Shown here: piece after piece, positions 1,468-22,993 of the stretch
Position numbering within the stretch: the first letter of the stretch is position 1
Layout of the letters: each line of letters starts with the position of its first letter
IMG/VR virus record: IMGVR_UViG_3300031999_000052
Location: 1-44,229 of that record
Length of the DNA stretch: 44,229 bases
Source of the DNA: a virus
Reading direction: 5' to 3' (one strand)
Made by a program: the position numbers and the translations under genes
Notes under the pieces: generated by a model
Database searches by the model: none
What the model saw: only the letters and a program-made list of their open reading frames with translations
Told to the model about the DNA's origin: nothing

Positions 1468-4400
1468 ATGGCGAGTAATGTTAAACCAATTGAACCTAAT
1501 GATGTGAACATTAATATGAATATGGTTAATGGTATTCCACAATATCAGGATATGTATATTTTTGCTGAATTAACAGCAACCAGAAAGGGAAGGACAGTAT
1601 TGGTTAGTATTGGGAATCTTAATGAATATTCTATTGAGGAAACTGGTCTGGGAGATACCAAAACGGTTAATTTTTTGGGTAATAATCAAGATATAACAAA
1701 TCCAAATTATTTAAATTTTACAACAAATTATTATGATGGCAGCAATGGAAATAAAGTTCAATATGAAGGATTTGGAATAAGTAATATTAAAATCGTAACT
1801 AATTCATCTTTTATTCCTCAAATTAATATTCAGTTTGTTGACATAAGAGGATTGGCATTTTTTAATCGTGAAGATTCACCATATAGAATATTATTTGATT
1901 TTCCACCACCCATTTTTAATTTAACAATTAAAGGATATTATGGTAAAGCATTAAAATATCAAATACATCTTGTTAAATACACTTCTGAATTTAAAGCAGA
2001 AAATGGTAATTTTATTATTGATGCAGAATTCGTAGCAGTTACATTTGCACCATTAGCCGATATTTTATTTAGATATATAATTAATTTTCCGTTAATTAAT
2101 AATCCAAATTCAATTAATCCAAATTCTGGTGTTAAACCAAATAACACATATGAATTAATAACAAAATTAAGAAGTTTATATTCAAAAGTTTCGGAACGAA
2201 TAAAAGGTGAAAATCTAACCAGAAATTATGACAATATAATAGCCAAAATTCGTAAGGTTGATGATATGTATTCAGCATTATCCTTTTACAATATGGATGA
2301 AAATTTGAATAAAAATGGTATTATATATACCATGATATTAGATAAATCACAATTATCAACACCCCCATTTAATATAAGCATAAATAATGCGGAAATAATT
2401 CAATTAAAAAATAATTATATTCTTAACTATGCCGATATAATTAAAGAATTTCCAACAGCCAATAATTCAGAAAATATTAACAAAAGACTTTATATTGCAA
2501 ATATATGTTCAAATGAAACTTCAGAATATTCATCTGTATCTGACCAAGAAGCTGCATTAAAAACATTTAGCAATAAATTAATTAATAATGCAAAAAATAT
2601 TGGACTGAATATCAATATTCCATCCCCAATTCGATTTACAAATAACTATAATATATCATTAGGAAAAGGAAATAATAATGAAGAATTAACATATTATGTT
2701 GGAATTGACATTACCGATTTATTCTTTAATTTATATAGAGAAAAAACTAATTTAAATATTGCAAGATCAAATACTTCAACAGAAATTAATATCATGATTA
2801 ATGGTTTAATTGAGGAAGAACTTGGCATGTTGCCCACAATATATAACATATTTAAAATTATTTTAGATGATGTTGATACATTTTTTAATATTTTAAGAGA
2901 AAAATCTAATAATGCCGAAGAACATCATAATGAAATCAGCATAAAAAATCAAATATTAAGTTCTGAAATGTATAAAGATATTGATGCTAAAAAAAATAAT
3001 ATTAATGCTCATATATTTGCATTTCCATTAGTTGTAAACAAACAACCAGTTTCTGGTGGATTTAGAGAGGTAAGAATCGCACCAATTGAACTTAGCAAAA
3101 GTTTAGAACCAAATCCATTTCCAGAAATAACATTGGTTAATAATTTTATTGATACGTTTTTTCTTCAAAAAAAATTCACCGAACTTTTAAATCAAAGGGA
3201 TATACTTGATGAAGATGGAAAATTAAGATGGATACCAATATCACCAATTGATTCACAACATGTAAATGATAATACTGAAAGTCCTTATATGAAAATTTTA
3301 TGTCCTTCAATTATTTCAGGAGAAATTAGTTTAAATTCTGAAGATGAATTGGTTCAAATATTCAATATTATGTTAAAAAGATTTTATGTATTATCCCAAT
3401 ATTCATTTTTAACAACTTTTTATGAAAATGGAAATATTGGTAAGGCAATTATTGAATTATTTTCAAATTCTGAAGCCATTAATTTAGTATCTTCAATAAC
3501 TGACATAAAACATGCTGGTCTTTTAAAAGAAAAAGCAAAAAAATATATAAATAATATTGAATTTTTTTATGATGATTTAGAAAAATCCGTTAATTATAAT
3601 TTTAATGAAACTGAAAAATTATTTTTTTCAATGTCTGATAATGAAAATGATCCTTATAATGATGCATATGTTGATAAAAAAAATTCTAATTATAAAGGAC
3701 TTAAAATAAGTTTTAGTGATATTAATTTTCAGGAAAATCCCGATAATAAATCCAACAATTTAATTGATGTGTTTATAACAGACTATAAAAATAAGAATTT
3801 TTTGAGTTGGGTTAAAGGTCAAAATCAATTTTTAAATTCCATTGGTTTAACCGATAAAAATGTTATATATGTTAAAGATGATATGATCGGGTCGGAATTA
3901 CTTAATTTTACTGTTAACCCATATTCATATAGTGTTACTGCTCCTAATATTCAGGAAAATCAAATAATAACTAATTATGAAGGAATTGTACTTAGAACAA
4001 AATTTTTAACAAATAATTTTAGTATTGGAATTGATAAAAAAACTGCCATTGATCTTTTATCTGAAAGTGGTAATATTATTTTTAAAAATGGAATCAGTGC
4101 AAATATAATGCCTAATTCTAATATAGAAAGCATTAATATTATTGATATGTGGGTAAATCAATTATCACATTATGATGATGAAATATACAATACAATAATT
4201 AACACAAAATCAAAATTAGGAGCATTATTATATTTATCAAATTTTGGATATACGTTAGGTCCATTTAATGATTTTCCCAATAAATTAAACACCAAAATAT
4301 TTAATATTCCAGCAGTAATTAGTGTTCCGGCATATTTACCACCATATATGGGTGTTTTAATTGATGCAATAAATGGCAATGGTATAACCGAAACCGAAAT

Positions 4401-6726
4401 ATATGATTTCTTCACAACTGGTGCAGGAAAAAATTTAAGTAGTTCAGGTCTTTTTATTTTTGCAGATATTTATGATATTAAAAATCATTTATCTGAAAAC
4501 GATAAATTAGAATTTAAAAAAGAATTTGATAATTTTTATAATGGTTTTTCATCGCTTAATTATAATGATATTTTTAATCAAATTAAATTATTATATGATG
4601 ATGTTAATAATATAGTGGAAATTAAAGAATTAAAAAAAAGGGCATATGAATCTGATTCAAATTTATTACAATATATAAATGCAAAAAAAAATGCATACGG
4701 ATATCGATTAATCCCCAATTCTGGAAGTGATAATCATAATTATTATGATTATATTATTAAACCATTAATTACAAGAACAAATATTATAAATTTTAGTGAT
4801 ATAACATTTAATATTGACCCAACAATTATTCATAATAATTATCAGTCTCTTAATTCATTAAATAAAGATACAATAATAAAACCCATCAATGATAATTATT
4901 TTAAAGAATTTTTTTCAAATACATTAAATGCAATAAGTGATGAAGAAAAAAAATTAATAGAATCAGAAAAAGCAAATGATAATTTAAAAAATGATGATGA
5001 TATTATAACGCAAACATATTATTCATTTAAAAATATTAACGATAAATGGCTTTCCAGTCCCAATTTTAAAAACATAAATGGTTTTCCATTTAATAATGAT
5101 AATAACAATAATTTAATTAAATTATTTGCTTTTGTTGACAGAGCAATGAATCCAATTGGTGATACAATGATTAATGCTGAGGTTTTATTAGAAATGTTTG
5201 AAGACCCAAATATTTCAGTATTTACTGCATTATCACAACTTTTATCATTAAATGGATTTGAATTTTTTCCATTACAAAATTTTATGTCATATGATGATGA
5301 AATAAATAATAATAAACTTTGGGAAGAATCATTTAAAATAGATACCAGTGGTATTGTTAATGGTAGTCCAGCATATGTTTGTATGTTTATTGGCGGGAGT
5401 TCAAGTTATCCAACAAATTGTGGTAATGGTTTTACTGATGATAGTATTATTGATTTGGAAACTGCAGATTCGTTAGATTTTAATACAACTAAACCAGCAG
5501 TTCTTTCCGATGATGAAATAAATAATCCTACATTTCCATATAGACAAGTAAAAGCATTTAAAGTAAGATTTGGTGAACAAAATCAATCAATGTTTACCGA
5601 TATAAAAATTGAAAGTAAAGAATATCCCGATACAAATGAATCAATACAAATATTATCAAGATTGGCTGGTGATATGAAAGATGAAGCACCCGTACCAAAA
5701 GGTCAAAATTTATATAACTTGTATGAAAACAGGGCATATAGAGCAACAATAACTGGCATGGGCAACGCAATGATTCAACCAACACAATATTTTCAATTAG
5801 AAAATGTGCCTTTATTTAATGGTGCATATTTAATATTATCGGTTGAACACACAATTGAATTGAATAAAATGATGACAAATTTTTCTGGAACTAAAATTCT
5901 CAGATATCCCGTTCCAAGAGTAATGAATCCAGCAGCAATTTATGGTTTTGAAGGTGGTTTTGAAAGTATGTCCCCCGGTGAAACGATACAAAAAACACAA
6001 GCAATAACAATGTCACAACCAAGGTTAACCGAATTAAAATCTGTTTTTGGAATTGATATTTCTCATTATCAGGGAAATATTAATTGGAATAAAATAATTA
6101 ATAATCCCAATACTAATGAACCAGAAATTAAATTTGCTTTTATAAAAGTCACTCAAGGAACTAACATTATTGATAACATGGCAGAAACAAATGCTACTCA
6201 AGCAAAAAATGCTGGTTTAAAAATTAGTTATTATCATTTTGGAGAACCATACACGGGTCAAGATATTGTTGGTAATGCAAAAGCACAAGCAAATTATTTT
6301 ATTAATACAATTATAACCAAAATTGCAGCAAATAAATTACCAGAACCAGATTTTCCACTTATATTAGATTTTGAAAATAATGATATTAATAATACCAAAT
6401 GGTCAATAAATAAAACCAATAATAATTTATGGATTAATACATTTATTACCGAACTAAAAAAAGCAAAATATAATACAATTCTTTATGGTGGTAAAAGTAT
6501 TTTTGAAGAAAAAACAAATAATAATTTTAGTGAAGTGCCATTATGGTTTGCAGGACCAATAGAAGCACCAAATAGTCCAGAAATGACAAATCCAATAATT
6601 CCAAGTGGATGGAAAAACTGGATTGTATGGCAATTTAGTTGGCAGGGAAGACCTTATGGACATCATGGTGACGTTGATTTAAATGCAATGAAAGAAGATT
6701 ATTTTAATTCACCCAAATTAACATAA
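1468..6726 (+). CDS. Baseplate hub protein with C-terminal GH25 muramidase
   Basis: A 1752-aa structural protein. Residues from about 1527 to the end form a GH25 lysozyme domain: GIDISHYQGNINW, FAFIKVTQGT, YYHFGEP, LILDFEN and WIVWQFSW are present, with the catalytic Asp/Glu in the DIS and LDFEN positions. Residues about 1365-1490 look like a gp27/gpD-type hub domain (MFTDIKIES, GMGNAMIQPTQYF, GAYLILSVEHTI). The N-terminal 200 residues are also baseplate-like. T4 splits hub and lysozyme between gp27 and gp5; here both appear in one chain with a different lysozyme family. It is on the plus strand inside an otherwise minus-strand block. It probably digests peptidoglycan at the tail tip during entry. 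Confidence 0.8.
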   Translation: MASNVKPIEPNDVNINMNMVNGIPQYQDMYIFAELTATRKGRTVLVSIGNLNEYSIEETGLGDTKTVNFLGNNQDITNPNYLNFTTNYYDGSNGNKVQYEGFGISNIKIVTNSSFIPQINIQFVDIRGLAFFNREDSPYRILFDFPPPIFNLTIKGYYGKALKYQIHLVKYTSEFKAENGNFIIDAEFVAVTFAPLADILFRYIINFPLINNPNSINPNSGVKPNNTYELITKLRSLYSKVSERIKGENLTRNYDNIIAKIRKVDDMYSALSFYNMDENLNKNGIIYTMILDKSQLSTPPFNISINNAEIIQLKNNYILNYADIIKEFPTANNSENINKRLYIANICSNETSEYSSVSDQEAALKTFSNKLINNAKNIGLNINIPSPIRFTNNYNISLGKGNNNEELTYYVGIDITDLFFNLYREKTNLNIARSNTSTEINIMINGLIEEELGMLPTIYNIFKIILDDVDTFFNILREKSNNAEEHHNEISIKNQILSSEMYKDIDAKKNNINAHIFAFPLVVNKQPVSGGFREVRIAPIELSKSLEPNPFPEITLVNNFIDTFFLQKKFTELLNQRDILDEDGKLRWIPISPIDSQHVNDNTESPYMKILCPSIISGEISLNSEDELVQIFNIMLKRFYVLSQYSFLTTFYENGNIGKAIIELFSNSEAINLVSSITDIKHAGLLKEKAKKYINNIEFFYDDLEKSVNYNFNETEKLFFSMSDNENDPYNDAYVDKKNSNYKGLKISFSDINFQENPDNKSNNLIDVFITDYKNKNFLSWVKGQNQFLNSIGLTDKNVIYVKDDMIGSELLNFTVNPYSYSVTAPNIQENQIITNYEGIVLRTKFLTNNFSIGIDKKTAIDLLSESGNIIFKNGISANIMPNSNIESINIIDMWVNQLSHYDDEIYNTIINTKSKLGALLYLSNFGYTLGPFNDFPNKLNTKIFNIPAVISVPAYLPPYMGVLIDAINGNGITETEIYDFFTTGAGKNLSSSGLFIFADIYDIKNHLSENDKLEFKKEFDNFYNGFSSLNYNDIFNQIKLLYDDVNNIVEIKELKKRAYESDSNLLQYINAKKNAYGYRLIPNSGSDNHNYYDYIIKPLITRTNIINFSDITFNIDPTIIHNNYQSLNSLNKDTIIKPINDNYFKEFFSNTLNAISDEEKKLIESEKANDNLKNDDDIITQTYYSFKNINDKWLSSPNFKNINGFPFNNDNNNNLIKLFAFVDRAMNPIGDTMINAEVLLEMFEDPNISVFTALSQLLSLNGFEFFPLQNFMSYDDEINNNKLWEESFKIDTSGIVNGSPAYVCMFIGGSSSYPTNCGNGFTDDSIIDLETADSLDFNTTKPAVLSDDEINNPTFPYRQVKAFKVRFGEQNQSMFTDIKIESKEYPDTNESIQILSRLAGDMKDEAPVPKGQNLYNLYENRAYRATITGMGNAMIQPTQYFQLENVPLFNGAYLILSVEHTIELNKMMTNFSGTKILRYPVPRVMNPAAIYGFEGGFESMSPGETIQKTQAITMSQPRLTELKSVFGIDISHYQGNINWNKIINNPNTNEPEIKFAFIKVTQGTNIIDNMAETNATQAKNAGLKISYYHFGEPYTGQDIVGNAKAQANYFINTIITKIAANKLPEPDFPLILDFENNDINNTKWSINKTNNNLWINTFITELKKAKYNTILYGGKSIFEEKTNNNFSEVPLWFAGPIEAPNSPEMTNPIIPSGWKNWIVWQFSWQGRPYGHHGDVDLNAMKEDYFNSPKLT

Positions 6727-7532: not shown

Positions 7533-7542
7533 TATAAATACT
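7533..7542 (-). promoter_or_regulatory. Late-type box before the 257-aa gene
   Basis: Sense AGTATTTATA followed by ATAAA, 19 nt before the ATG at 7513. Confidence 0.6.
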
Positions 7543-9614: not shown

Positions 9615-9624
9615 TATAAATACT
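9615..9624 (-). promoter_or_regulatory. Late-type box before the portal gene
   Basis: Sense AGTATTTATA followed by seven A, 23 nt before the ATG at 9591. Confidence 0.6.
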
Positions 9625-9662: not shown

Positions 9663-10964
9663 TTAATTTTTCTTTTTCTTATCCAAATCTTTAAACAACC
9701 ATTTATTTACTAAATATGGATTTAAAGACGATACGCTATTTGGTGAAATCATGGGTTTATTTTTAAAACCCTTATTTTTTTCAATTTCTTTAATATCATT
9801 AATAGTGATAATTGAATTAAGCATTTTTTCGGTAATTCCTTTACTTTGTTTAAATCTTGCCATATCAAAATTTAATACATATAAACCAATTGATAATCCC
9901 ATAATTGAATCATCATGGAATGAACGTTTATGATCAGCAACACGATTGCCAGCAATTGTAATAAAAGTTTTTAATTCATTTAATAATCTCATTGATCTAA
10001 TAATAACATCTTCCAAATGAATTGCTCTTTGCATTTCAAGAAGAACAGATGCACGATTATTACCAATGAAAAATCCGGGAATTAAATCTACATTAACCAC
10101 CGCACCGTCTGCCATTGTTTTTTGTCCTTTTTTAATATATCCTTGTAATCTGTCTCTTGATGGTTTATGTGTTACTTCTGCATAATGAATATTTTCATAA
10201 CCAAATTCAAGCATTTTTTCTATAGTTTGTACACCATAACCGCCAGTAATATCAACTACACAATATGCATTATTATATCGTTTACCATATTGATATGCAA
10301 TTTCTGCAAGCATTTGAGGTGTTATTTTACCATAATATTCAGCAACTTGTTCAACTTTATGTCTTTTTATTTTAACTTTTTTTACTTTTTCGCCTTTTAT
10401 AATTATTTTTTCTTCAATAATTTCAATGGTTTTTAAAATATTAGCCGTTGAATTATCTTCACCATGTCCGGGTGATGCATCCAATGCAATAATATAATCT
10501 TCACCAGCAATTGAGTCTTCAAAAATCCACATATTTTTATCAATATATTCCTGACGTATTGGAACTTTGATTTCATATTCTTCAATACGTTTTAGATATT
10601 CTTCGGCAATAAAATTATCTCCAGAACCCAAAAAGCTACAATTATGATTTAAAAAACCATTTGCAAAATATTCACAATCTTTAGAATCTACAATATCGTA
10701 GAATTCATGTTCACCCACAATTTCCACAGATTTCACATAAAAATCACCTTCGGTTGTTGTAATATATGCTACATTGGGAACTAATGATTTAGCATACATA
10801 TCAACACCATTAGCTAAAAATATGTGGTCTTCACTTACAATTATTGAAAAATTATTTTCTAATGTTATTTTATAACCAACATTTTTAAATAATTTTTCAA
10901 TTCCAAGAAAATCAACAAATTCGCCAGAATTATTTAAAATTTCGTATTCTGTATTTATTAACAT
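9663..10964 (-). CDS. 17: Terminase large subunit, C-terminal half with C-intein
   Basis: A 433-aa protein. Residues 1-108 are a C-intein: a block-B-like IIVSEDHIF (41-49), a block-F-like EFYDIVDSKDCEYFANG and the terminal FLNHN, directly followed by Cys109, the +1 extein nucleophile. Residues 109-433 are the gp17 nuclease half (CSFLGSGDNFIAEEY; acidic residues in ALDASPG, VVDITGGYG and HDDSIMGLSIG). The ATG overlaps the stop of the upstream half by 7 nt (ATGTTAA), so translation is probably coupled. Trans-splicing with the N-half should rebuild a normal terminase. The C-intein resembles the atypically split AceL-TerL intein in length, position and start. Confidence 0.92.
   Translation of the reverse strand: MLINTEYEILNNSGEFVDFLGIEKLFKNVGYKITLENNFSIIVSEDHIFLANGVDMYAKSLVPNVAYITTTEGDFYVKSVEIVGEHEFYDIVDSKDCEYFANGFLNHNCSFLGSGDNFIAEEYLKRIEEYEIKVPIRQEYIDKNMWIFEDSIAGEDYIIALDASPGHGEDNSTANILKTIEIIEEKIIIKGEKVKKVKIKRHKVEQVAEYYGKITPQMLAEIAYQYGKRYNNAYCVVDITGGYGVQTIEKMLEFGYENIHYAEVTHKPSRDRLQGYIKKGQKTMADGAVVNVDLIPGFFIGNNRASVLLEMQRAIHLEDVIIRSMRLLNELKTFITIAGNRVADHKRSFHDDSIMGLSIGLYVLNFDMARFKQSKGITEKMLNSIITINDIKEIEKNKGFKNKPMISPNSVSSLNPYLVNKWLFKDLDKKKKN
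10641..10964 (-). other. C-intein (IntC), 108 aa
   Basis: Codes for the C-terminal splicing part, ending in His-Asn before Cys+1. It contains block B, so the break lies between blocks A and B rather than at the common endonuclease position. Confidence 0.88.
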
Positions 10965-12121
10965 GTTAAAAATTTAACACATTCATTGATTATTTTTAAA
11001 TCTTTTTTGTTTCTATTATATTCATCGGAAGTTATTATTTTAATATTATAACCCATTTCATTAATTATTTTATATCTTTTTTCATCATTTCTTGATGAAT
11101 GCCAATAATTACCATTATATTCAATAACATTATTTCCTTGTTTAAAATCAAACATCATTACTGTTTTATCATAAAAATATTCTGATGGTATTTTTAAAAC
11201 ATATTCTTGATTTAAATCGTGGAAATAAATACCCTCTTTATTTTTCAATCGTTCATAGATTTTCCAAAATAATTCTTGCGAAATTACACTAAATTTATTG
11301 GCTTTTAATTGTGATAATTTATTCATTTTCTTTTCAACACAATCTTCATATTTTATTATACCCGTTGTATTACCATATTTTCTAATAAACCATTCCTTAC
11401 TATTTGTTTTTATTTTTCGTAATTTTTCTTTTCTTTTATTCATATGTGTTTCCCATCCATCTCCATATTTTTTAAAAAACCATTCTTTTGAAGGATATTT
11501 GGGATTACATTTTGAGCATAAAATTATTACTTCATTATTTATCATTTTCCAATGTTTTAACTTTTTATGAATTTCACAATAAATGTTAATTTTATTAACA
11601 AAAAAGAATAATCTATAAGAAAATTTATTTAAATTTTTATTAAGTGTATTAAATTCTTGTGTATAAAAGTATAGACTTAAATATAATCTTTTATCATCAT
11701 TTAATAATCTTCTATTACCCGATTTACCAAAATATTTTTTATAGTTATTTTTAAGTAATTCTCTTGTTTGTTCCTTATTATATAAATTTTTAATTTTATT
11801 TAATTCATTATGACAAATATTCCATTGTTTCTGTGCCGAATTTATATTTGCTTCTTTAAAACATTTATATTTCTTTTCAAAAATTAATATTTTATTATCT
11901 TTTTTTATTAAATTAATGTCGCCATTGTAATTTATAAGATATTTTATTTTAGCTTCTAAAATTTTATTTGAATGATATACTTGCATATCATAAGTATATA
12001 TATTAATAAGACTTAATAGATTTGGAAAATCTTTATTAAACTTTGATGTACCACCTTTTATAAAATACTGTTCAATGTTTTTAACCAATTTTAAAATTTT
12101 AATTAAAATATTTTTATCCAT
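10958..12121 (-). CDS. Possible free-standing Vsr-like homing endonuclease from an internal start
   Basis: In-frame ATG at codon 410 of the terminase N-half. It is directly preceded by a 7-bp inverted repeat that contains a late-type promoter box. Starting here gives a 387-aa protein containing only the linker and endonuclease parts, separate from the intein. The C-terminal core (IEYNGNYWHS, then a Lys/Arg-rich helix and YNIKIITSDEYNRN) resembles the Vsr-like nucleases described in fractured split-intein genes. The internal start is inferred from the regulatory signals. Confidence 0.55.
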   Translation of the reverse strand: MDKNILIKILKLVKNIEQYFIKGGTSKFNKDFPNLLSLINIYTYDMQVYHSNKILEAKIKYLINYNGDINLIKKDNKILIFEKKYKCFKEANINSAQKQWNICHNELNKIKNLYNKEQTRELLKNNYKKYFGKSGNRRLLNDDKRLYLSLYFYTQEFNTLNKNLNKFSYRLFFFVNKINIYCEIHKKLKHWKMINNEVIILCSKCNPKYPSKEWFFKKYGDGWETHMNKRKEKLRKIKTNSKEWFIRKYGNTTGIIKYEDCVEKKMNKLSQLKANKFSVISQELFWKIYERLKNKEGIYFHDLNQEYVLKIPSEYFYDKTVMMFDFKQGNNVIEYNGNYWHSSRNDEKRYKIINEMGYNIKIITSDEYNRNKKDLKIINECVKFLTC

Positions 12122-13348
12122 GAGTATTGTATTTTTAGATAAATACTCACAAGAATTGTTTTGTTCTTCGAACTTTTTATATAAATCTGAAATTTTAATA
12201 TTTTCAATAATATCGTTTTTTTTATTCCTAATTGTTATAACTGCATCACCAAAAATACATAAAAGTTCCTGTGCGATCTTACGCATATCACCATTTGCAT
12301 TTCGAATTTGTTCTTCAAACCAAGGTGAACTGGCTTCCCATCCATCATCCATTAGTTGAATTCTTTTTTTATTGTCCCAATTTTCATCAATTAATCTAAT
12401 TTCAGTTTCTTTTCCTTTATTTTTTAACCAAACCAAATCTTTATTATATCTTGGGTCATTAAACCACCACAATTCAACTGCTTTAAAATTATTTTCATTA
12501 TTTCTTGCACCAATAAATGTTTTATAGAAAACCGCATCTAAGCCGGATGGTGTGCTAACCATAATTGCAGCACCACCTGTTTGTAATGTTGGTTGTGCTG
12601 ATGTCCAGAATTTATCGCCTTTTTCAGTCCATGCTGTTTCATCCCAGAATAATAATGTTGGAGTATAACCACGAAGACCTTTTGATGAAAAAGCACCTAA
12701 AGATGAACCATTATCATATCTTTTTAATTTTTGAGTATCTTTAAAATTACCCTTATTAGTATCTCTACCTGTTTTAGGTCTTAACCATTCAGGACAACTA
12801 TCAATAAAATCAACAGAATCATTCATCATTTCATCACGAGCAGTTTCCAATTTATCGGCAACAATAGCAACACTTCTGTTTTCATTAAACATTACGTACC
12901 ACGCAATAAATGCACAAGTTGTTGTTGAAACACCACCCTGACGATATTTATTAGCAATAACAAATCTTTCTTCCATATAAGTTTTAATCAAATCCTTTTG
13001 AAAATCAAAAAAAATAAATGGAACAATCATACCTGCTTTGCCTTTAGTTTGGTCAAAAATTGTTAAATATGTTTCAATGAAATAAATTGGATTAGTTGCA
13101 CAATGAACAATTTCATATTCTTGTTCGACAAGTGTTAATTCACTTGCTTTTTTTGCAATACCATCTTTTGTAACAATAATCGGTTCAATTTTTCCAGATT
13201 TTTTTCGAAGTTCAATTGCTCGTTTTCTGGCTTCTTCTTTTTCTCTTTCTTTTTGAATATCGAATGGAATAACGGGTATGTGTTCTGGAAATAATGATTC
13301 ATCTTTATCTTTATCGGGAGTAATATCTAAATTTGTGTTGATACTCAT
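10958..13348 (-). CDS. 17: Terminase large subunit N-half, N-intein and Vsr-like endonuclease in one frame
   Basis: A 796-aa protein. Residues 1-363 are the gp17 ATPase half: a variant Walker A, NKYRQGGVSTTT (133-144), and Walker B, LLFWDETAW (232-240). Cys364 starts a short N-intein (CIFGDAVITIRN, then ISDLYKKF) of about 33 residues. The frame then stays open for 400 more codons. This part has a Cys-rich patch (YCEIH...CSKC), two WFxxKYG-type repeats and a C-terminal Vsr/EDxHD-like core around VIEYNGNYWHSSRNDEKR. Splicing must remove the whole tail in trans with the downstream gene. Whether the endonuclease works as a fusion or mainly from an internal start is open. Confidence 0.9.
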   Translation of the reverse strand: MSINTNLDITPDKDKDESLFPEHIPVIPFDIQKEREKEEARKRAIELRKKSGKIEPIIVTKDGIAKKASELTLVEQEYEIVHCATNPIYFIETYLTIFDQTKGKAGMIVPFIFFDFQKDLIKTYMEERFVIANKYRQGGVSTTTCAFIAWYVMFNENRSVAIVADKLETARDEMMNDSVDFIDSCPEWLRPKTGRDTNKGNFKDTQKLKRYDNGSSLGAFSSKGLRGYTPTLLFWDETAWTEKGDKFWTSAQPTLQTGGAAIMVSTPSGLDAVFYKTFIGARNNENNFKAVELWWFNDPRYNKDLVWLKNKGKETEIRLIDENWDNKKRIQLMDDGWEASSPWFEEQIRNANGDMRKIAQELLCIFGDAVITIRNKKNDIIENIKISDLYKKFEEQNNSCEYLSKNTILMDKNILIKILKLVKNIEQYFIKGGTSKFNKDFPNLLSLINIYTYDMQVYHSNKILEAKIKYLINYNGDINLIKKDNKILIFEKKYKCFKEANINSAQKQWNICHNELNKIKNLYNKEQTRELLKNNYKKYFGKSGNRRLLNDDKRLYLSLYFYTQEFNTLNKNLNKFSYRLFFFVNKINIYCEIHKKLKHWKMINNEVIILCSKCNPKYPSKEWFFKKYGDGWETHMNKRKEKLRKIKTNSKEWFIRKYGNTTGIIKYEDCVEKKMNKLSQLKANKFSVISQELFWKIYERLKNKEGIYFHDLNQEYVLKIPSEYFYDKTVMMFDFKQGNNVIEYNGNYWHSSRNDEKRYKIINEMGYNIKIITSDEYNRNKKDLKIINECVKFLTC
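12122..12148 (-). promoter_or_regulatory. Hairpin plus late-type box just before the internal endonuclease start
   Basis: Perfect inverted repeat GAGTATT/AATACTC with a 13-nt loop, abutting the ATG at 12121. The 5' arm and loop contain AGTATTTATC (12138-12147), the late-type box, 16 nt before that ATG. On long transcripts the hairpin would lie over the start region; transcripts begun at the box would lack the 5' arm. Confidence 0.6.
12158..12259 (-). other. N-intein (IntN), about 33 aa
   Basis: Begins with Cys364 after extein residues AQELL and shows block A only (CIFGDAVITI, KISDLYKKF). Very similar in form to the 25-residue AceL-TerL N-intein. The 3' limit is approximate because the frame continues into linker. 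Confidence 0.85.
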
Positions 13349-13364
13349 TTATAAATATTTATAA

Positions 13365-13465: not shown

Positions 13466-13475
13466 TATAAATACC
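13466..13475 (-). promoter_or_regulatory. Late-type box with no ORF behind it
   Basis: Sense GGTATTTATA followed by ATAAAA, inside the gap between the 162-aa gene and terminase. Confidence 0.5.
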
Positions 13476-14553: not shown

Positions 14554-16569
14554 TTATTTACTTTTTTTAGATACAACAGATTCGTATAATTTGAACTGTT
14601 CGTCAATTACCGCATCAAGTTTTTTTAATGTTTCGGATTTTTTACTTTCCGTAAGATTTGATTTTCTTAAACCAGCCTTTTCTTCAAGTCTATTACGAAT
14701 ATATTTTCTTAATTTTTGTTCCGTTTCATTCATTGCAACATTAACTATTTTATTCTGAGCATCAACATTTACATCAACTGTAGTTGTCGGAGCACCATCA
14801 GGTTTTACAACACCACCACCAAGAACTTGTGCGTCAGTTGCAAATCCAATTTCGGGTTTTTTATCAACAATATCTTTTTCAATTTCTTCACCCTTTTCAA
14901 CTTCAAGAGGTTCATCATCTTCTTTTAATATATTTGGTTGTACTTCAACATTTGCTGGGTCAAAACCTTCAGCAGCAGTTCTAAATTTACTTAAATTTGC
15001 TTGAGCAGCACCAGCACCAAGTTGATTTTGAATTGTTGCTAAAATACTTTTAACATTAATTGGTTGTTGACCTGCTTTTGTTAATGTAGCATTTAAATTA
15101 GCAATTTGTTTACCCAATGTAGCAGCATCCGCTTCAACTTTTTTTACTGCGGGATTTATTTCGCCTTTATAATATGTTTGTTTAGCACCTTGATATGCTT
15201 TACCAATTGCTTGTCCAGCACCTTTAACCGCACCACCAATTGCTTGTCCAACACCTTTTGCAGCACCACCAATTGCCTGTCCAGCAGCTTTACCTAAACT
15301 CCTTAAACCACCCCAAAGTTCATTAAGTTGAGCCATTGAATCTTCTTCAGTTGCTTCATTCATTGAATCAACCTGTGGTTGAATTTTTTCAGCATATTCT
15401 TCGTGACCATAATCACCCTTTAATTTATCAAGAACATCTGGAGATAATTTAATAATTAAACTAATTGTTTTTTCATCACCATCATTCATACCTTCTTCAT
15501 GTGCACTAACATAACCATTTACTACATTGGCTTGTTCTTCACTATCACATTCCATAAATGATTCAGGAGTGCCATAACCTCTTGATTCAGCATATTTACC
15601 AAAACCGCCACATTCTGAACATTGTTCTTCTTCAATTTCATCATTTTGAGATACATTTGCACCTAATTCTTCAACATCTTCATCAGGAACAACTTTGAGA
15701 ATTTTGTCTGCCATTATTTTTCTGTCTTCAATTTCAACATCTTCGAATTTATCTTTAAATGCTGTAAGAAATGAATTTACGTATGATTTAACTTGAGAAT
15801 CAGTTAATTCAGTACCTCTTATTTTATTAGTTACTTTACCAAGAGATTTTTCAATTTCTTTTATTGTAATACTTTTTTCATCTTCAGGAGCAACAGCATC
15901 ACTTGTGGGTTCTTCTTCTGAAGGCATTTCTTCACCACCTTCTTCTGGTGCAGGTTCTTCTGAAGGCATTTCTTCACCACCTTCTTCTGGTGCAGGTTCT
16001 TCTGAAGGTACTTCTTCACCACCTTCTTCTGGTGCAGGTTCTTCTGAAGGTACTTCTTCACCACCTTCTTCTGGTGCAGGTTCTATAGGTACTTCTGTAT
16101 CTACGGGCATTTCAGGAGTTGCTTCTGCACTTGTTGCTGCATCTAAGTCACCTAATTTACTTTCAGCATTGTCAATTTCTTCACCAGCTTTATCTTCATT
16201 AAGTCTTTTCTTTTCCTTACTACCAGTTTTACTTGGTTTTAATGAAACCGCTTCATTAATTGTATGAAATATCATATTTCTTTGTTTATCGGCTTCGGAT
16301 AATGATTTATATTGAAAATTTGTCACATTTTCCAATCCACCAATATATGCAAAATCAGCAATATTAGGGTCTTGTTTTGTTCCAGCTTTTTTAACATAAT
16401 AATGGTGCTGTTCCTTGATAATGCCATAAGCAACACCATCTGCTGCTCTTTTATAATCAATTAAAGTACCTAAATTACGATTTTTAGATTCTTTTAATGC
16501 AGGTTTATTTACTTCTGCTAATTCCTGAAGTCTTTGATAAAATGCTTCTTTTGTTGCATGTCTTTTCAT
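14554..16569 (-). CDS. Scaffold/internal-protein polyprotein with many gp21-type sites
   Basis: 671 aa, very acidic. In order: a leader-like N-terminus ending in ALKE (24-27); four copies of a 14-residue Pro/Glu/Gly repeat (about 164-219); a helical acidic segment; a Cys motif CSECGG (317-322); a Gly/Ala-rich amphipathic stretch with GQAIGGA repeats (about 420-462); and a basic C-terminus. (L/I)xE tripeptides suitable for prohead protease occur after residues 27, 106, 125, 417, 550 and 641, so processing could release several peptides, including the glycine-rich one. T4 gp22 and gp67 give internal peptides in the same way. The role is inferred. Confidence 0.7.
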   Translation of the reverse strand: MKRHATKEAFYQRLQELAEVNKPALKESKNRNLGTLIDYKRAADGVAYGIIKEQHHYYVKKAGTKQDPNIADFAYIGGLENVTNFQYKSLSEADKQRNMIFHTINEAVSLKPSKTGSKEKKRLNEDKAGEEIDNAESKLGDLDAATSAEATPEMPVDTEVPIEPAPEEGGEEVPSEEPAPEEGGEEVPSEEPAPEEGGEEMPSEEPAPEEGGEEMPSEEEPTSDAVAPEDEKSITIKEIEKSLGKVTNKIRGTELTDSQVKSYVNSFLTAFKDKFEDVEIEDRKIMADKILKVVPDEDVEELGANVSQNDEIEEEQCSECGGFGKYAESRGYGTPESFMECDSEEQANVVNGYVSAHEEGMNDGDEKTISLIIKLSPDVLDKLKGDYGHEEYAEKIQPQVDSMNEATEEDSMAQLNELWGGLRSLGKAAGQAIGGAAKGVGQAIGGAVKGAGQAIGKAYQGAKQTYYKGEINPAVKKVEADAATLGKQIANLNATLTKAGQQPINVKSILATIQNQLGAGAAQANLSKFRTAAEGFDPANVEVQPNILKEDDEPLEVEKGEEIEKDIVDKKPEIGFATDAQVLGGGVVKPDGAPTTTVDVNVDAQNKIVNVAMNETEQKLRKYIRNRLEEKAGLRKSNLTESKKSETLKKLDAVIDEQFKLYESVVSKKSK
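15913..16080 (-). repeat. Four 42-bp direct repeats inside the polyprotein gene
   Basis: Tandem units coding PAPEEGGEE(V/M)PSEE. Copies are nearly identical at DNA level, so copy number is likely to vary between strains. Confidence 0.9.
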
Positions 16570-22927: not shown

Positions 22928-22983
22928 TTTTGGGTTATATTAATAAGAATTGAAATTATTTCAAATACTTTTTGACTAATATA

Positions 22984-22993
22984 AATATTTATA
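22984..22993 (+). promoter_or_regulatory. Late-type box before HNH gene 1
   Basis: Sense AATATTTATA followed by TTAAA, 13 nt before the ATG at 23007; same layout as before HNH gene 2 at 43145. Confidence 0.55.

What the first reader, a model, noticed from the sequence alone, without database searches (positions are those of the whole stretch)
9663..13348. Terminase gene fractured by an AceL-TerL-like atypical split intein
Seen: the N-extein ends before Cys364 of one ORF, followed by a block-A-only N-intein. The next ORF starts with a 108-aa C-intein ending in HN, followed by Cys and the nuclease half. The two ORFs overlap by 7 nt (ATGTTAA). Known: AceL-TerL is a split int from a phage terminase with a 25-aa N-part and 104-aa C-part. 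This appears to be a relative in a defined phage context, with different sequence.
Basis: partly seen in the sequence, partly recalled or inferred. Interest (0 to 1): 0.85.

Follow-up and report, generated by a model that had tools for sequence, protein, structure and literature searches.

The report
Split terminase intein with fused endonuclease
A large bacterial virus has its DNA-packaging motor gene cut in two by a self-removing protein element; here the element's DNA-cutting enzyme is joined to the first half, and the enzyme's own start signal appears to lie inside the element's last codons, which shows step by step how mobile elements can break genes.

Summary
The terminase (TerL) is broken after residue 363 by an intein split between blocks A and B, with Cys1, block-B His, His-Asn and Cys+1 in place and a 7-nt ORF overlap. 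About 30 relatives lack the intein at exactly this codon junction; others carry a contiguous mini-intein, a split intein with free-standing HEN, with N-fused HEN (window plus seven relatives), with C-fused HEN, or with a dead or lost HEN. No locus has HEN joined on both sides. The intein is scattered over the terminase tree. A gene-start motif of these phages (GTATTTAT) is embedded in the last N-intein codons in 15 of 15 HEN-bearing loci and mutated in the two where HEN is dead or gone, so HEN probably keeps its own promoter. Best explanation: an AceL/GOS-TerL-type trans-splicing mobile intein of the 'fractured gene' kind, in which stop-codon loss fused HEN to the N-half. New variant of a known kind. 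Splicing, cleavage and promoter activity are inferred, not shown.

The parts
12260..13348 (-). TerL N-extein, residues 1-363 (ATPase half), ending AQELL
   Evidence: ORF; Terminase_6N E 4e-10; exact codon junction with C-extein in about 30 distinct intein-less relatives
12140..12259 (-). N-intein, 40 aa (N ORF residues 364-403): block A with Cys1, CIFGDAVITIRNKKNDIIENIKISDLYKKFEEQNNSCEYL
   Evidence: Homologous 40-aa N-inteins end in a stop right after or one codon after xYL in free-HEN loci
12139..12146 (-). GTATTTAT gene-start (promoter-like) motif inside the last N-intein codons, 25 nt upstream of the HEN internal ATG
   Evidence: Motif sense-oriented upstream of 14 of 50 window genes, 0.22 expected; 15 of 15 HEN-bearing loci have it here, 0 of 2 HEN-dead loci
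10961..12121 (-). Homing endonuclease region fused in frame to the N-intein (387 aa from internal Met410 of the N ORF; stop TAA at 10958-10960)
   Evidence: 15-member alignment, Met invariant; dN/dS 0.13 against L108
10961..11314 (-). Vsr/I-Bth0305I-like catalytic domain (about residues 316-433 of the N-intein-HEN part); candidate catalytic residues E692, D734, H750, D755 of the N ORF
   Evidence: VIA-align Z 9.6 to 3R3P, Z 8.1 to 1VSR; profile hit to 3R3P E 0.0012; conservation
10958..10964 (-). 7-nt overlap ATGTTAA: start codon of the C-half and stop codon of the N-half/HEN ORF
   Evidence: 4-, 7- or 10-nt overlaps in the same frame relation in relatives
10641..10964 (-). C-intein, 108 aa: block B (SEDH), blocks F and G, ending His107-Asn108
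   Evidence: alignment; Intein_splicing E 7e-4; gp41-1 intein 1e-9 and CatC 3e-4 with profile
9663..10640 (-). TerL C-extein (nuclease half), 325 aa starting Cys+1 (CSFLGSG), plus stop
   Evidence: phrog_24361 terminase E 1e-4; relatives at 73-85% identity
13364..13371 (-). GTATTTAT motif 23 nt upstream of the TerL N-half ATG

Best explanation
A mobile, class-1, atypically split intein of the AceL/GOS-TerL kind interrupts TerL at the start of its nuclease half. The N-polypeptide (TerL 1-363, 40-aa N-intein, HEN) and the C-polypeptide (108-aa C-intein, TerL 364-688) are made from overlapping ORFs, the second probably by translational coupling. The intein pieces assemble, trans-splice to give a 688-aa terminase, and release N-intein-HEN and C-intein. 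HEN, made as part of the fusion and probably also alone from an internal promoter and ATG, would cut intein-less TerL alleles of co-infecting phages and spread the element. The fusion arose when the N-intein's stop codons were lost, first extending the N-intein across the HEN promoter and then into HEN. Shown: anatomy, conservation, empty sites, patchy distribution, purifying selection, motif conservation. Inferred: splicing, cleavage, promoter activity, coupling.
For: Splicing residues: Cys1, block-B His, His-Asn invariant; CSFLG follows in all. A contiguous homologue at the same site folds as HINT (pLDDT 81.5, pTM 0.75; gp41-1 Foldseek E 1e-8, VidaL and CatC listed; Z up to 19). Free-HEN loci whose C-inteins are 68-80% identical to the window's can only make whole TerL in trans. 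HEN C-terminal domain resembles I-Bth0305I and Vsr. dN/dS 0.10-0.16 for HEN, 0.05-0.10 for C-intein in close fused pairs. Intein presence needs 11 changes on the TerL tree, at least 6 forced. Synonymous divergence is lower in the element than in exteins in 3 of 5 pairs (Fisher p 1e-9 to 2e-18). GTATTTAT in 15 of 15 N-intein ends; the codon before TAT is GAG, ACG, GCG, ATG or GTG, always ending in G although GAG is only 12% of Glu codons. In L125 the stop TGA lies just before a similar motif.
Against: No biochemical evidence. For the window's own pair (with L108) the element is not less diverged than the exteins (p 0.39), so recent homing of this copy is not shown. HEN codon bias could lower synonymous differences in other pairs. 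Trees of short, fast inteins are weakly resolved. The motif's being a promoter is inferred from position and orientation only.
Confidence: 0.86

Rival explanations
1. A -1 ribosomal frameshift at the overlap joins N-intein, HEN and C-intein into one chain, which splices in cis; the 'split' is only apparent.
For: The C-half frame is the -1 frame of HEN in all loci and is open for only 3-7 codons before its ATG, with a T-run inside.
Against: Of eight N-fused loci only L022 has the canonical T TTT TTA; L024 has no T-run heptamer. Seven close relatives have HEN as a separate ORF, where this frameshift cannot yield full TerL. Split loci keep an ATG at C-intein residue 1, contiguous alleles lack it.
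Confidence: 0.05
2. The intein is dead and TerL works as two non-covalent subunits, as reported for a phage ribonucleotide reductase gene in pieces.
For: Splitting of an essential gene by HEN into two working peptides is known (cited in PMC10448857).
Against: All splicing residues are invariant and both intein parts are under strong purifying selection, not expected for a dead intein.
Confidence: 0.04
3. Same trans-splicing intein, but the covalent HEN fusion is a neutral accident: only HEN made from the internal promoter and ATG is active, and the fused tail is a passenger. (A rival on the fusion only, compatible with the rest of the best explanation.)
For: Internal Met and GTATTTAT kept in all eight fused loci; fusion needs only stop-to-sense changes, perhaps twice (AU p 0.03 against one clade).
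Against: The linker stays open in all eight fused loci, which have diverged a good deal; nothing tested separates this from a useful fusion.
Confidence: 0.5
4. The insert is a group I intron or an assembly artefact rather than an intein.
For: HENs of this family occur in introns too (3R3P is named a mobile intron protein).
Against: No Rfam intron match in the window; intein motifs conserved and in frame; identical C-intein DNA in several independent metagenomes (L108 group).
Confidence: 0.01

Closest known systems
AceL-TerL / GOS-TerL atypically split inteins (consensus 'Cat', PDB 6DSL)
   Same: Phage TerL host, split between block A and block B after the first helix, short N-intein and ~104-108-aa C-intein; CatC profile match E 3e-4. 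PMC11766414 gives IntN 25 aa (AceL), 37 aa (GOS) and 104 aa (Cat IntC).
   Different: N-intein is followed in the same ORF by ~390 aa of HEN; 40-aa N-intein whose end overlaps a gene-start motif; sequence clearly divergent (the L130 group is nearer to Cat).
Fractured genes (Dassa et al. 2009, paper not held; content partly from memory)
   Same: Phage gene broken in two by a split intein with a Vsr-like HEN between; control elements travelling with HEN were noted there.
   Different: HEN is not free-standing here but fused to the N-half; promoter-like motif lies inside N-intein codons.
Aeromonas phage PX29 genes 17A/17B, Vibrio phage Va1, Providencia phage PSTRCR_127 (GenBank)
   Same: Same TerL region, short N-intein ORF overlapping the next ORF, C-intein. 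PX29 is annotated 'N-intein' and 'GIY-YIG endonuclease and C-intein'.
   Different: HEN fused to the C-intein (PX29 GIY-YIG; Va1 Vsr-like) or free (PSTRCR_127 GIY-YIG); none fused to the N-intein.
I-Bth0305I / EDxHD (Vsr-like) homing endonucleases (3R3P, 1VSR)
   Same: Catalytic-domain fold Z 9.6 and 8.1, sequence profile E 0.0012.
   Different: Associated with a split intein; long N-terminal region with no assigned relative, presumably DNA-binding.
Canonical HEN-containing inteins (PI-SceI type)
   Same: HINT plus HEN as one mobile unit.
   Different: HEN there sits at one conserved site near the C-end (PMC6801210); here it is at the atypical site near the N-end and joined at one side only.

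Membership tests
Class 1 intein (HINT) | Nucleophile at position 1 (Cys) in block A | tested here: met
   Cys1 in all N-inteins
Class 1 intein (HINT) | Block B His, penultimate His, terminal Asn, nucleophilic +1 residue | tested here: met
   H47, H107, N108 invariant in 19; Cys+1 in all
Class 1 intein (HINT) | HINT fold | tested here: met
   Shown on contiguous homologue L029; the window's two pieces could not be folded together here
Class 1 intein (HINT) | Protein splicing activity | not testable with these tools
   Needs expression
AceL/GOS-TerL atypically split intein | Intein parts on two ORFs, split between block A and block B | tested here: met
   40-aa and 108-aa parts on two ORFs
AceL/GOS-TerL atypically split intein | Detectable sequence relationship to AceL/GOS consensus | tested here: met
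   CatC E 3e-4 with profile A5; linking group L130 E 2e-10
AceL/GOS-TerL atypically split intein | Same TerL insertion codon as AceL itself | not tested
   AceL locus not fetched; same site shown for the Cat-like L130 group
Fractured gene | Conserved gene broken by a split intein with an endonuclease coding region between the halves | tested here: met
Fractured gene | Endonuclease is a free-standing gene | tested here: not met
   In frame with the N-half in the window and seven relatives; met in L004, L014, L018, L023, L026, L027, L110, L125. Hence filed as a variant, not a plain member
EDxHD/Vsr-like homing endonuclease | Vsr-like catalytic fold | tested here: met
   Z 9.6 (3R3P), 8.1 (1VSR)
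EDxHD/Vsr-like homing endonuclease | Catalytic E, D, H, D | tested here: inconclusive
   Conserved candidates; not superposed residue by residue on 3R3P
EDxHD/Vsr-like homing endonuclease | Site-specific cleavage of the empty allele | not testable with these tools
   Needs enzyme assay

The most novel reading that the evidence does not exclude
The last codons of the N-intein double as the promoter of the endonuclease that travels with it. Stepwise stop-codon loss (L125, then free-HEN loci, then N-fused loci) turned a free-standing endonuclease into a domain joined to the intein at the atypical site, where HEN is tolerated only because the chain is broken; splicing then releases an N-intein-endonuclease. 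The locus group records, at one codon, how an intein is invaded, split, fused and reduced.
Probability: 0.45. Interest if true: 0.76.

Novelty: new variant of a known kind. Interest (0 to 1): 0.63.

Why it matters
Beyer et al. 2019 (PMC6801210) note that all HEN domains in inteins sit at one site and that, if invasion were random, inteins with HEN elsewhere should exist. Here HEN is covalently joined to an intein at another site, but always with the chain broken on one side (none joined on both in the loci read), which fits their steric argument. The same site offers empty, contiguous, split-free, N-fused, C-fused and HEN-dead alleles, so the origin of split inteins becomes testable. The short N-intein and its contiguous relatives are also candidate protein-engineering tools.

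Tried and rejected
Frameshift and intron explanations (see rivals). Reading the window as evidence of a recent transfer: not supported for the window-L108 pair. A single origin of the fusion: HEN-only tree of 15 allows it (64% of bootstraps), rooted tree disfavours it (AU p 0.03, with a long L125 branch); left open. First alignments of the short N-intein fragments were misplaced by MAFFT and redone with extein anchors and trimmed ends. I first took L135 for a cis-contiguous HEN intein; its HEN is interrupted by stops and its halves are separate ORFs. The TATAAATA motif (T4 late promoter) seemed to explain gene starts, but the enriched orientation is GTATTTATA, its reverse complement. The split site is not exactly the 'N35' loop of PMC6801210; by hand alignment it lies some 10 residues nearer the N-end. 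A paper search for the motif found nothing relevant. No match of the HEN N-terminal ~280 aa to a solved fold was seen, but that part was barely tested.

Full report
What is there. The window is a 44,229-base virus record with T4-like packaging genes: portal (Portal_T4 E 2e-61), prohead protease and TerL. TerL is in two overlapping minus-strand ORFs. ORF 10958-13348 (796 aa) is TerL 1-363, then CIFGDAVITIRNKKNDIIENIKISDLYKKFEEQNNSCEYL, then ~393 further residues. ORF 9663-10964 (433 aa) is a 108-aa C-intein ending LNHN, then CSFLGSG and the nuclease half.

Empty sites. A scan of IMG/VR with the C-half gave 80 loci. In about 40 loci (30 distinct rows in the tree) the codon for TerL residue 363 is followed directly by the first C-extein codon; the joined peptide is (I/V)(A/S)QELLCSF(L/V)GS. 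This fixes the insertion point and the predicted spliced length, 688 aa.

Alleles at the site. In the distinct intein-bearing loci of this clade, and in more distant relatives, I find: contiguous mini-intein without HEN (L029, L030, L032, L191); split with free-standing HEN (L004, L014, L018, L023, L026, L027, L110, L125, L130, L131, L133, L136, L138, L139); split with HEN fused to the N-half (window, L108, L009, L012, L095, L022, L024, L025); split with HEN fused to the C-half (Va1 L001, L144/L146/L148; GIY-YIG in PX29 L003); split with HEN lost or broken (L011, L015, L135). PSTRCR_127 (L002) has a free GIY-YIG HEN. None has HEN in frame with both intein parts. In the free-HEN loci of the window's clade the N-intein ends right after, or one codon after, 'xYL' in a stop; in the fused ones that stop is TAT or TCT followed by sense codons.

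It is an intein. Cys1, the block-B His, His107-Asn108 and Cys+1 are invariant. AlphaFold2 of the contiguous homologue L029 (31-row alignment, pLDDT 81.5, pTM 0.75) gives a HINT fold: gp41-1 E 1e-8, VidaL 5e-7, CatC 9e-5, many inteins at Z 13-19. By sequence the profile matches gp41-1 (1e-9) and CatC, the AceL/GOS-TerL consensus (3e-4); the more distant group at the same site matches CatC at 2e-10. The split lies between block A and block B, as in AceL and GOS.

The HEN. The N-intein-HEN part was modelled (pLDDT 79, pTM 0.41, so separate domains). Residues ~316-433 match the I-Bth0305I catalytic domain (3R3P, Z 9.6) and Vsr (1VSR, Z 8.1), and 3R3P is also the only sensible sequence-profile hit (E 0.0012). 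Another chain, 3hrl (a putative endonuclease-like protein), scores 9.9, tied. Purifying selection: dN/dS 0.13 (HEN), 0.17 (N-intein), 0.10 (C-intein) for window against L108, with similar values in other close fused pairs; the wider pair window-L012 gives a less informative 0.66 for the 40-codon N-intein.

Mobility. On the TerL tree the 'empty' label needs 11 changes, at least 6 forced by well-supported branches. L024 (split, N-fused) and L032 (contiguous) are sister TerLs (SH-aLRT 100) with very different inteins; L027/L110 and L022/L025 are sister TerL groups among the intein-bearing loci but differ in intein type. Synonymous differences are rarer in the element than in the exteins for L027-L110 (0.10 vs 0.32), L022-L025 (0.14 vs 0.32) and L012-L095 (0.23 vs 0.42, due to HEN), but not clearly for window-L108 or L009-L024.

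A gene-start motif inside the N-intein. GTATTTATA occurs 19 times in the window against 1.7 expected. GTATTTAT lies within 60 nt upstream of 14 of 50 window genes (0.22 expected), mostly 21-32 nt before ATG; in 32 loci of the clade the sense orientation is seen about 100 times and the antisense 4 times upstream of 177 ORFs (loci share orthologues, so these are not independent counts). In a 349-kb relative GTATTTATA occurs 80 times against 27 for the reversed control. In all 15 HEN-bearing loci of the clade this motif is formed by the last N-intein codons, xxG TAT TTA T, 15-25 nt before the HEN ATG. The residue before Tyr is E, T, A, M or V, but its codon always ends in G, rare here (GAG 12%, ACG 6%, GCG 7%, GTG 10%). 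In L011 (HEN gone) and L015 (HEN broken) TAT has become TTT. The C-intein ATG has no such motif. In L125 the N-intein stops (TGA) just before a similar CTATTTAT; in most of the far group a TATTTAT lies between the N-intein stop and HEN. I read this as HEN's own promoter, overrun by the N-intein reading frame as stops were lost. The same stop loss, one step further, fuses HEN to the N-half. The fused state may have arisen twice (AU p 0.03 against one clade), but L125 is a long branch and the trees are only moderately supported.

How it most likely works. Inferred: N-half and HEN are translated as one chain from the TerL promoter-like motif; HEN also alone from its own; the C-half by coupling at the overlap. 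The intein parts meet, splice, and give whole TerL. HEN cuts intein-less alleles in mixed infections. A -1 frameshift that would make one chain is unlikely, as the slippery sequence is not conserved and free-HEN relatives cannot use it.

Placement. Works like, and is related to, AceL/GOS-TerL split inteins. It differs from a plain 'fractured gene' because HEN is not free-standing. N-fusion of HEN was not found in the literature that is held; Dassa et al. 2009 itself is not held, so priority is uncertain. PX29 shows that C-fusion was annotated before.

Noticed in passing
L015:2832-4201, L018:2033-3411, L029:3206-4572, L030:3185-4587, L131:1533-4180: A second, contiguous intein-like insert (~450 aa; longer in L131) at TerL residue ~265, VS|CVTKD...(T)HN|TPSG; in L015 and L131 it ends in Gln (GYQ, GHQ) instead of Asn.
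   Followed up: partly
window 33606-33988 (+): A full-length tmRNA gene (Rfam RF00023, 103.6 bits) in a phage, with an unusually long predicted tag (29 aa, ARAGORN).
   Followed up: no
window, 19 sites (e.g. 7533-7541, 9615-9623, 13466-13474, 41282-41290): GTATTTATA, probable promoter motif of this phage group; it is the reverse complement of a T4-late-promoter-like TATAAATAC, an orientation I cannot explain.
   Followed up: partly
window 13350-13363 and 22980-22993: Palindrome TATAAATATTTATA upstream of two gene starts.
   Followed up: no
L173:888-2906, L174:4501-6519, L181:3632-4925: Vsr-like HEN followed by a C-intein-like stretch (L173, L174) and TerL from residue 141: another TerL insertion site, near the P-loop.
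   Followed up: no
window 1468-6726 (+): 1752-aa ORF with a GH25 lysozyme-like domain at its C-terminus, opposite in strand to the packaging genes.
   Followed up: no
window 14554-16569 (-): ORF with PAPEEGGEE(V/M)PSEE repeats and no Pfam match.
   Followed up: no
L001 and L002: Vibrio phage Va1 and Providencia phage PSTRCR_127 TerL are split by inteins that are not annotated as such.
   Followed up: partly
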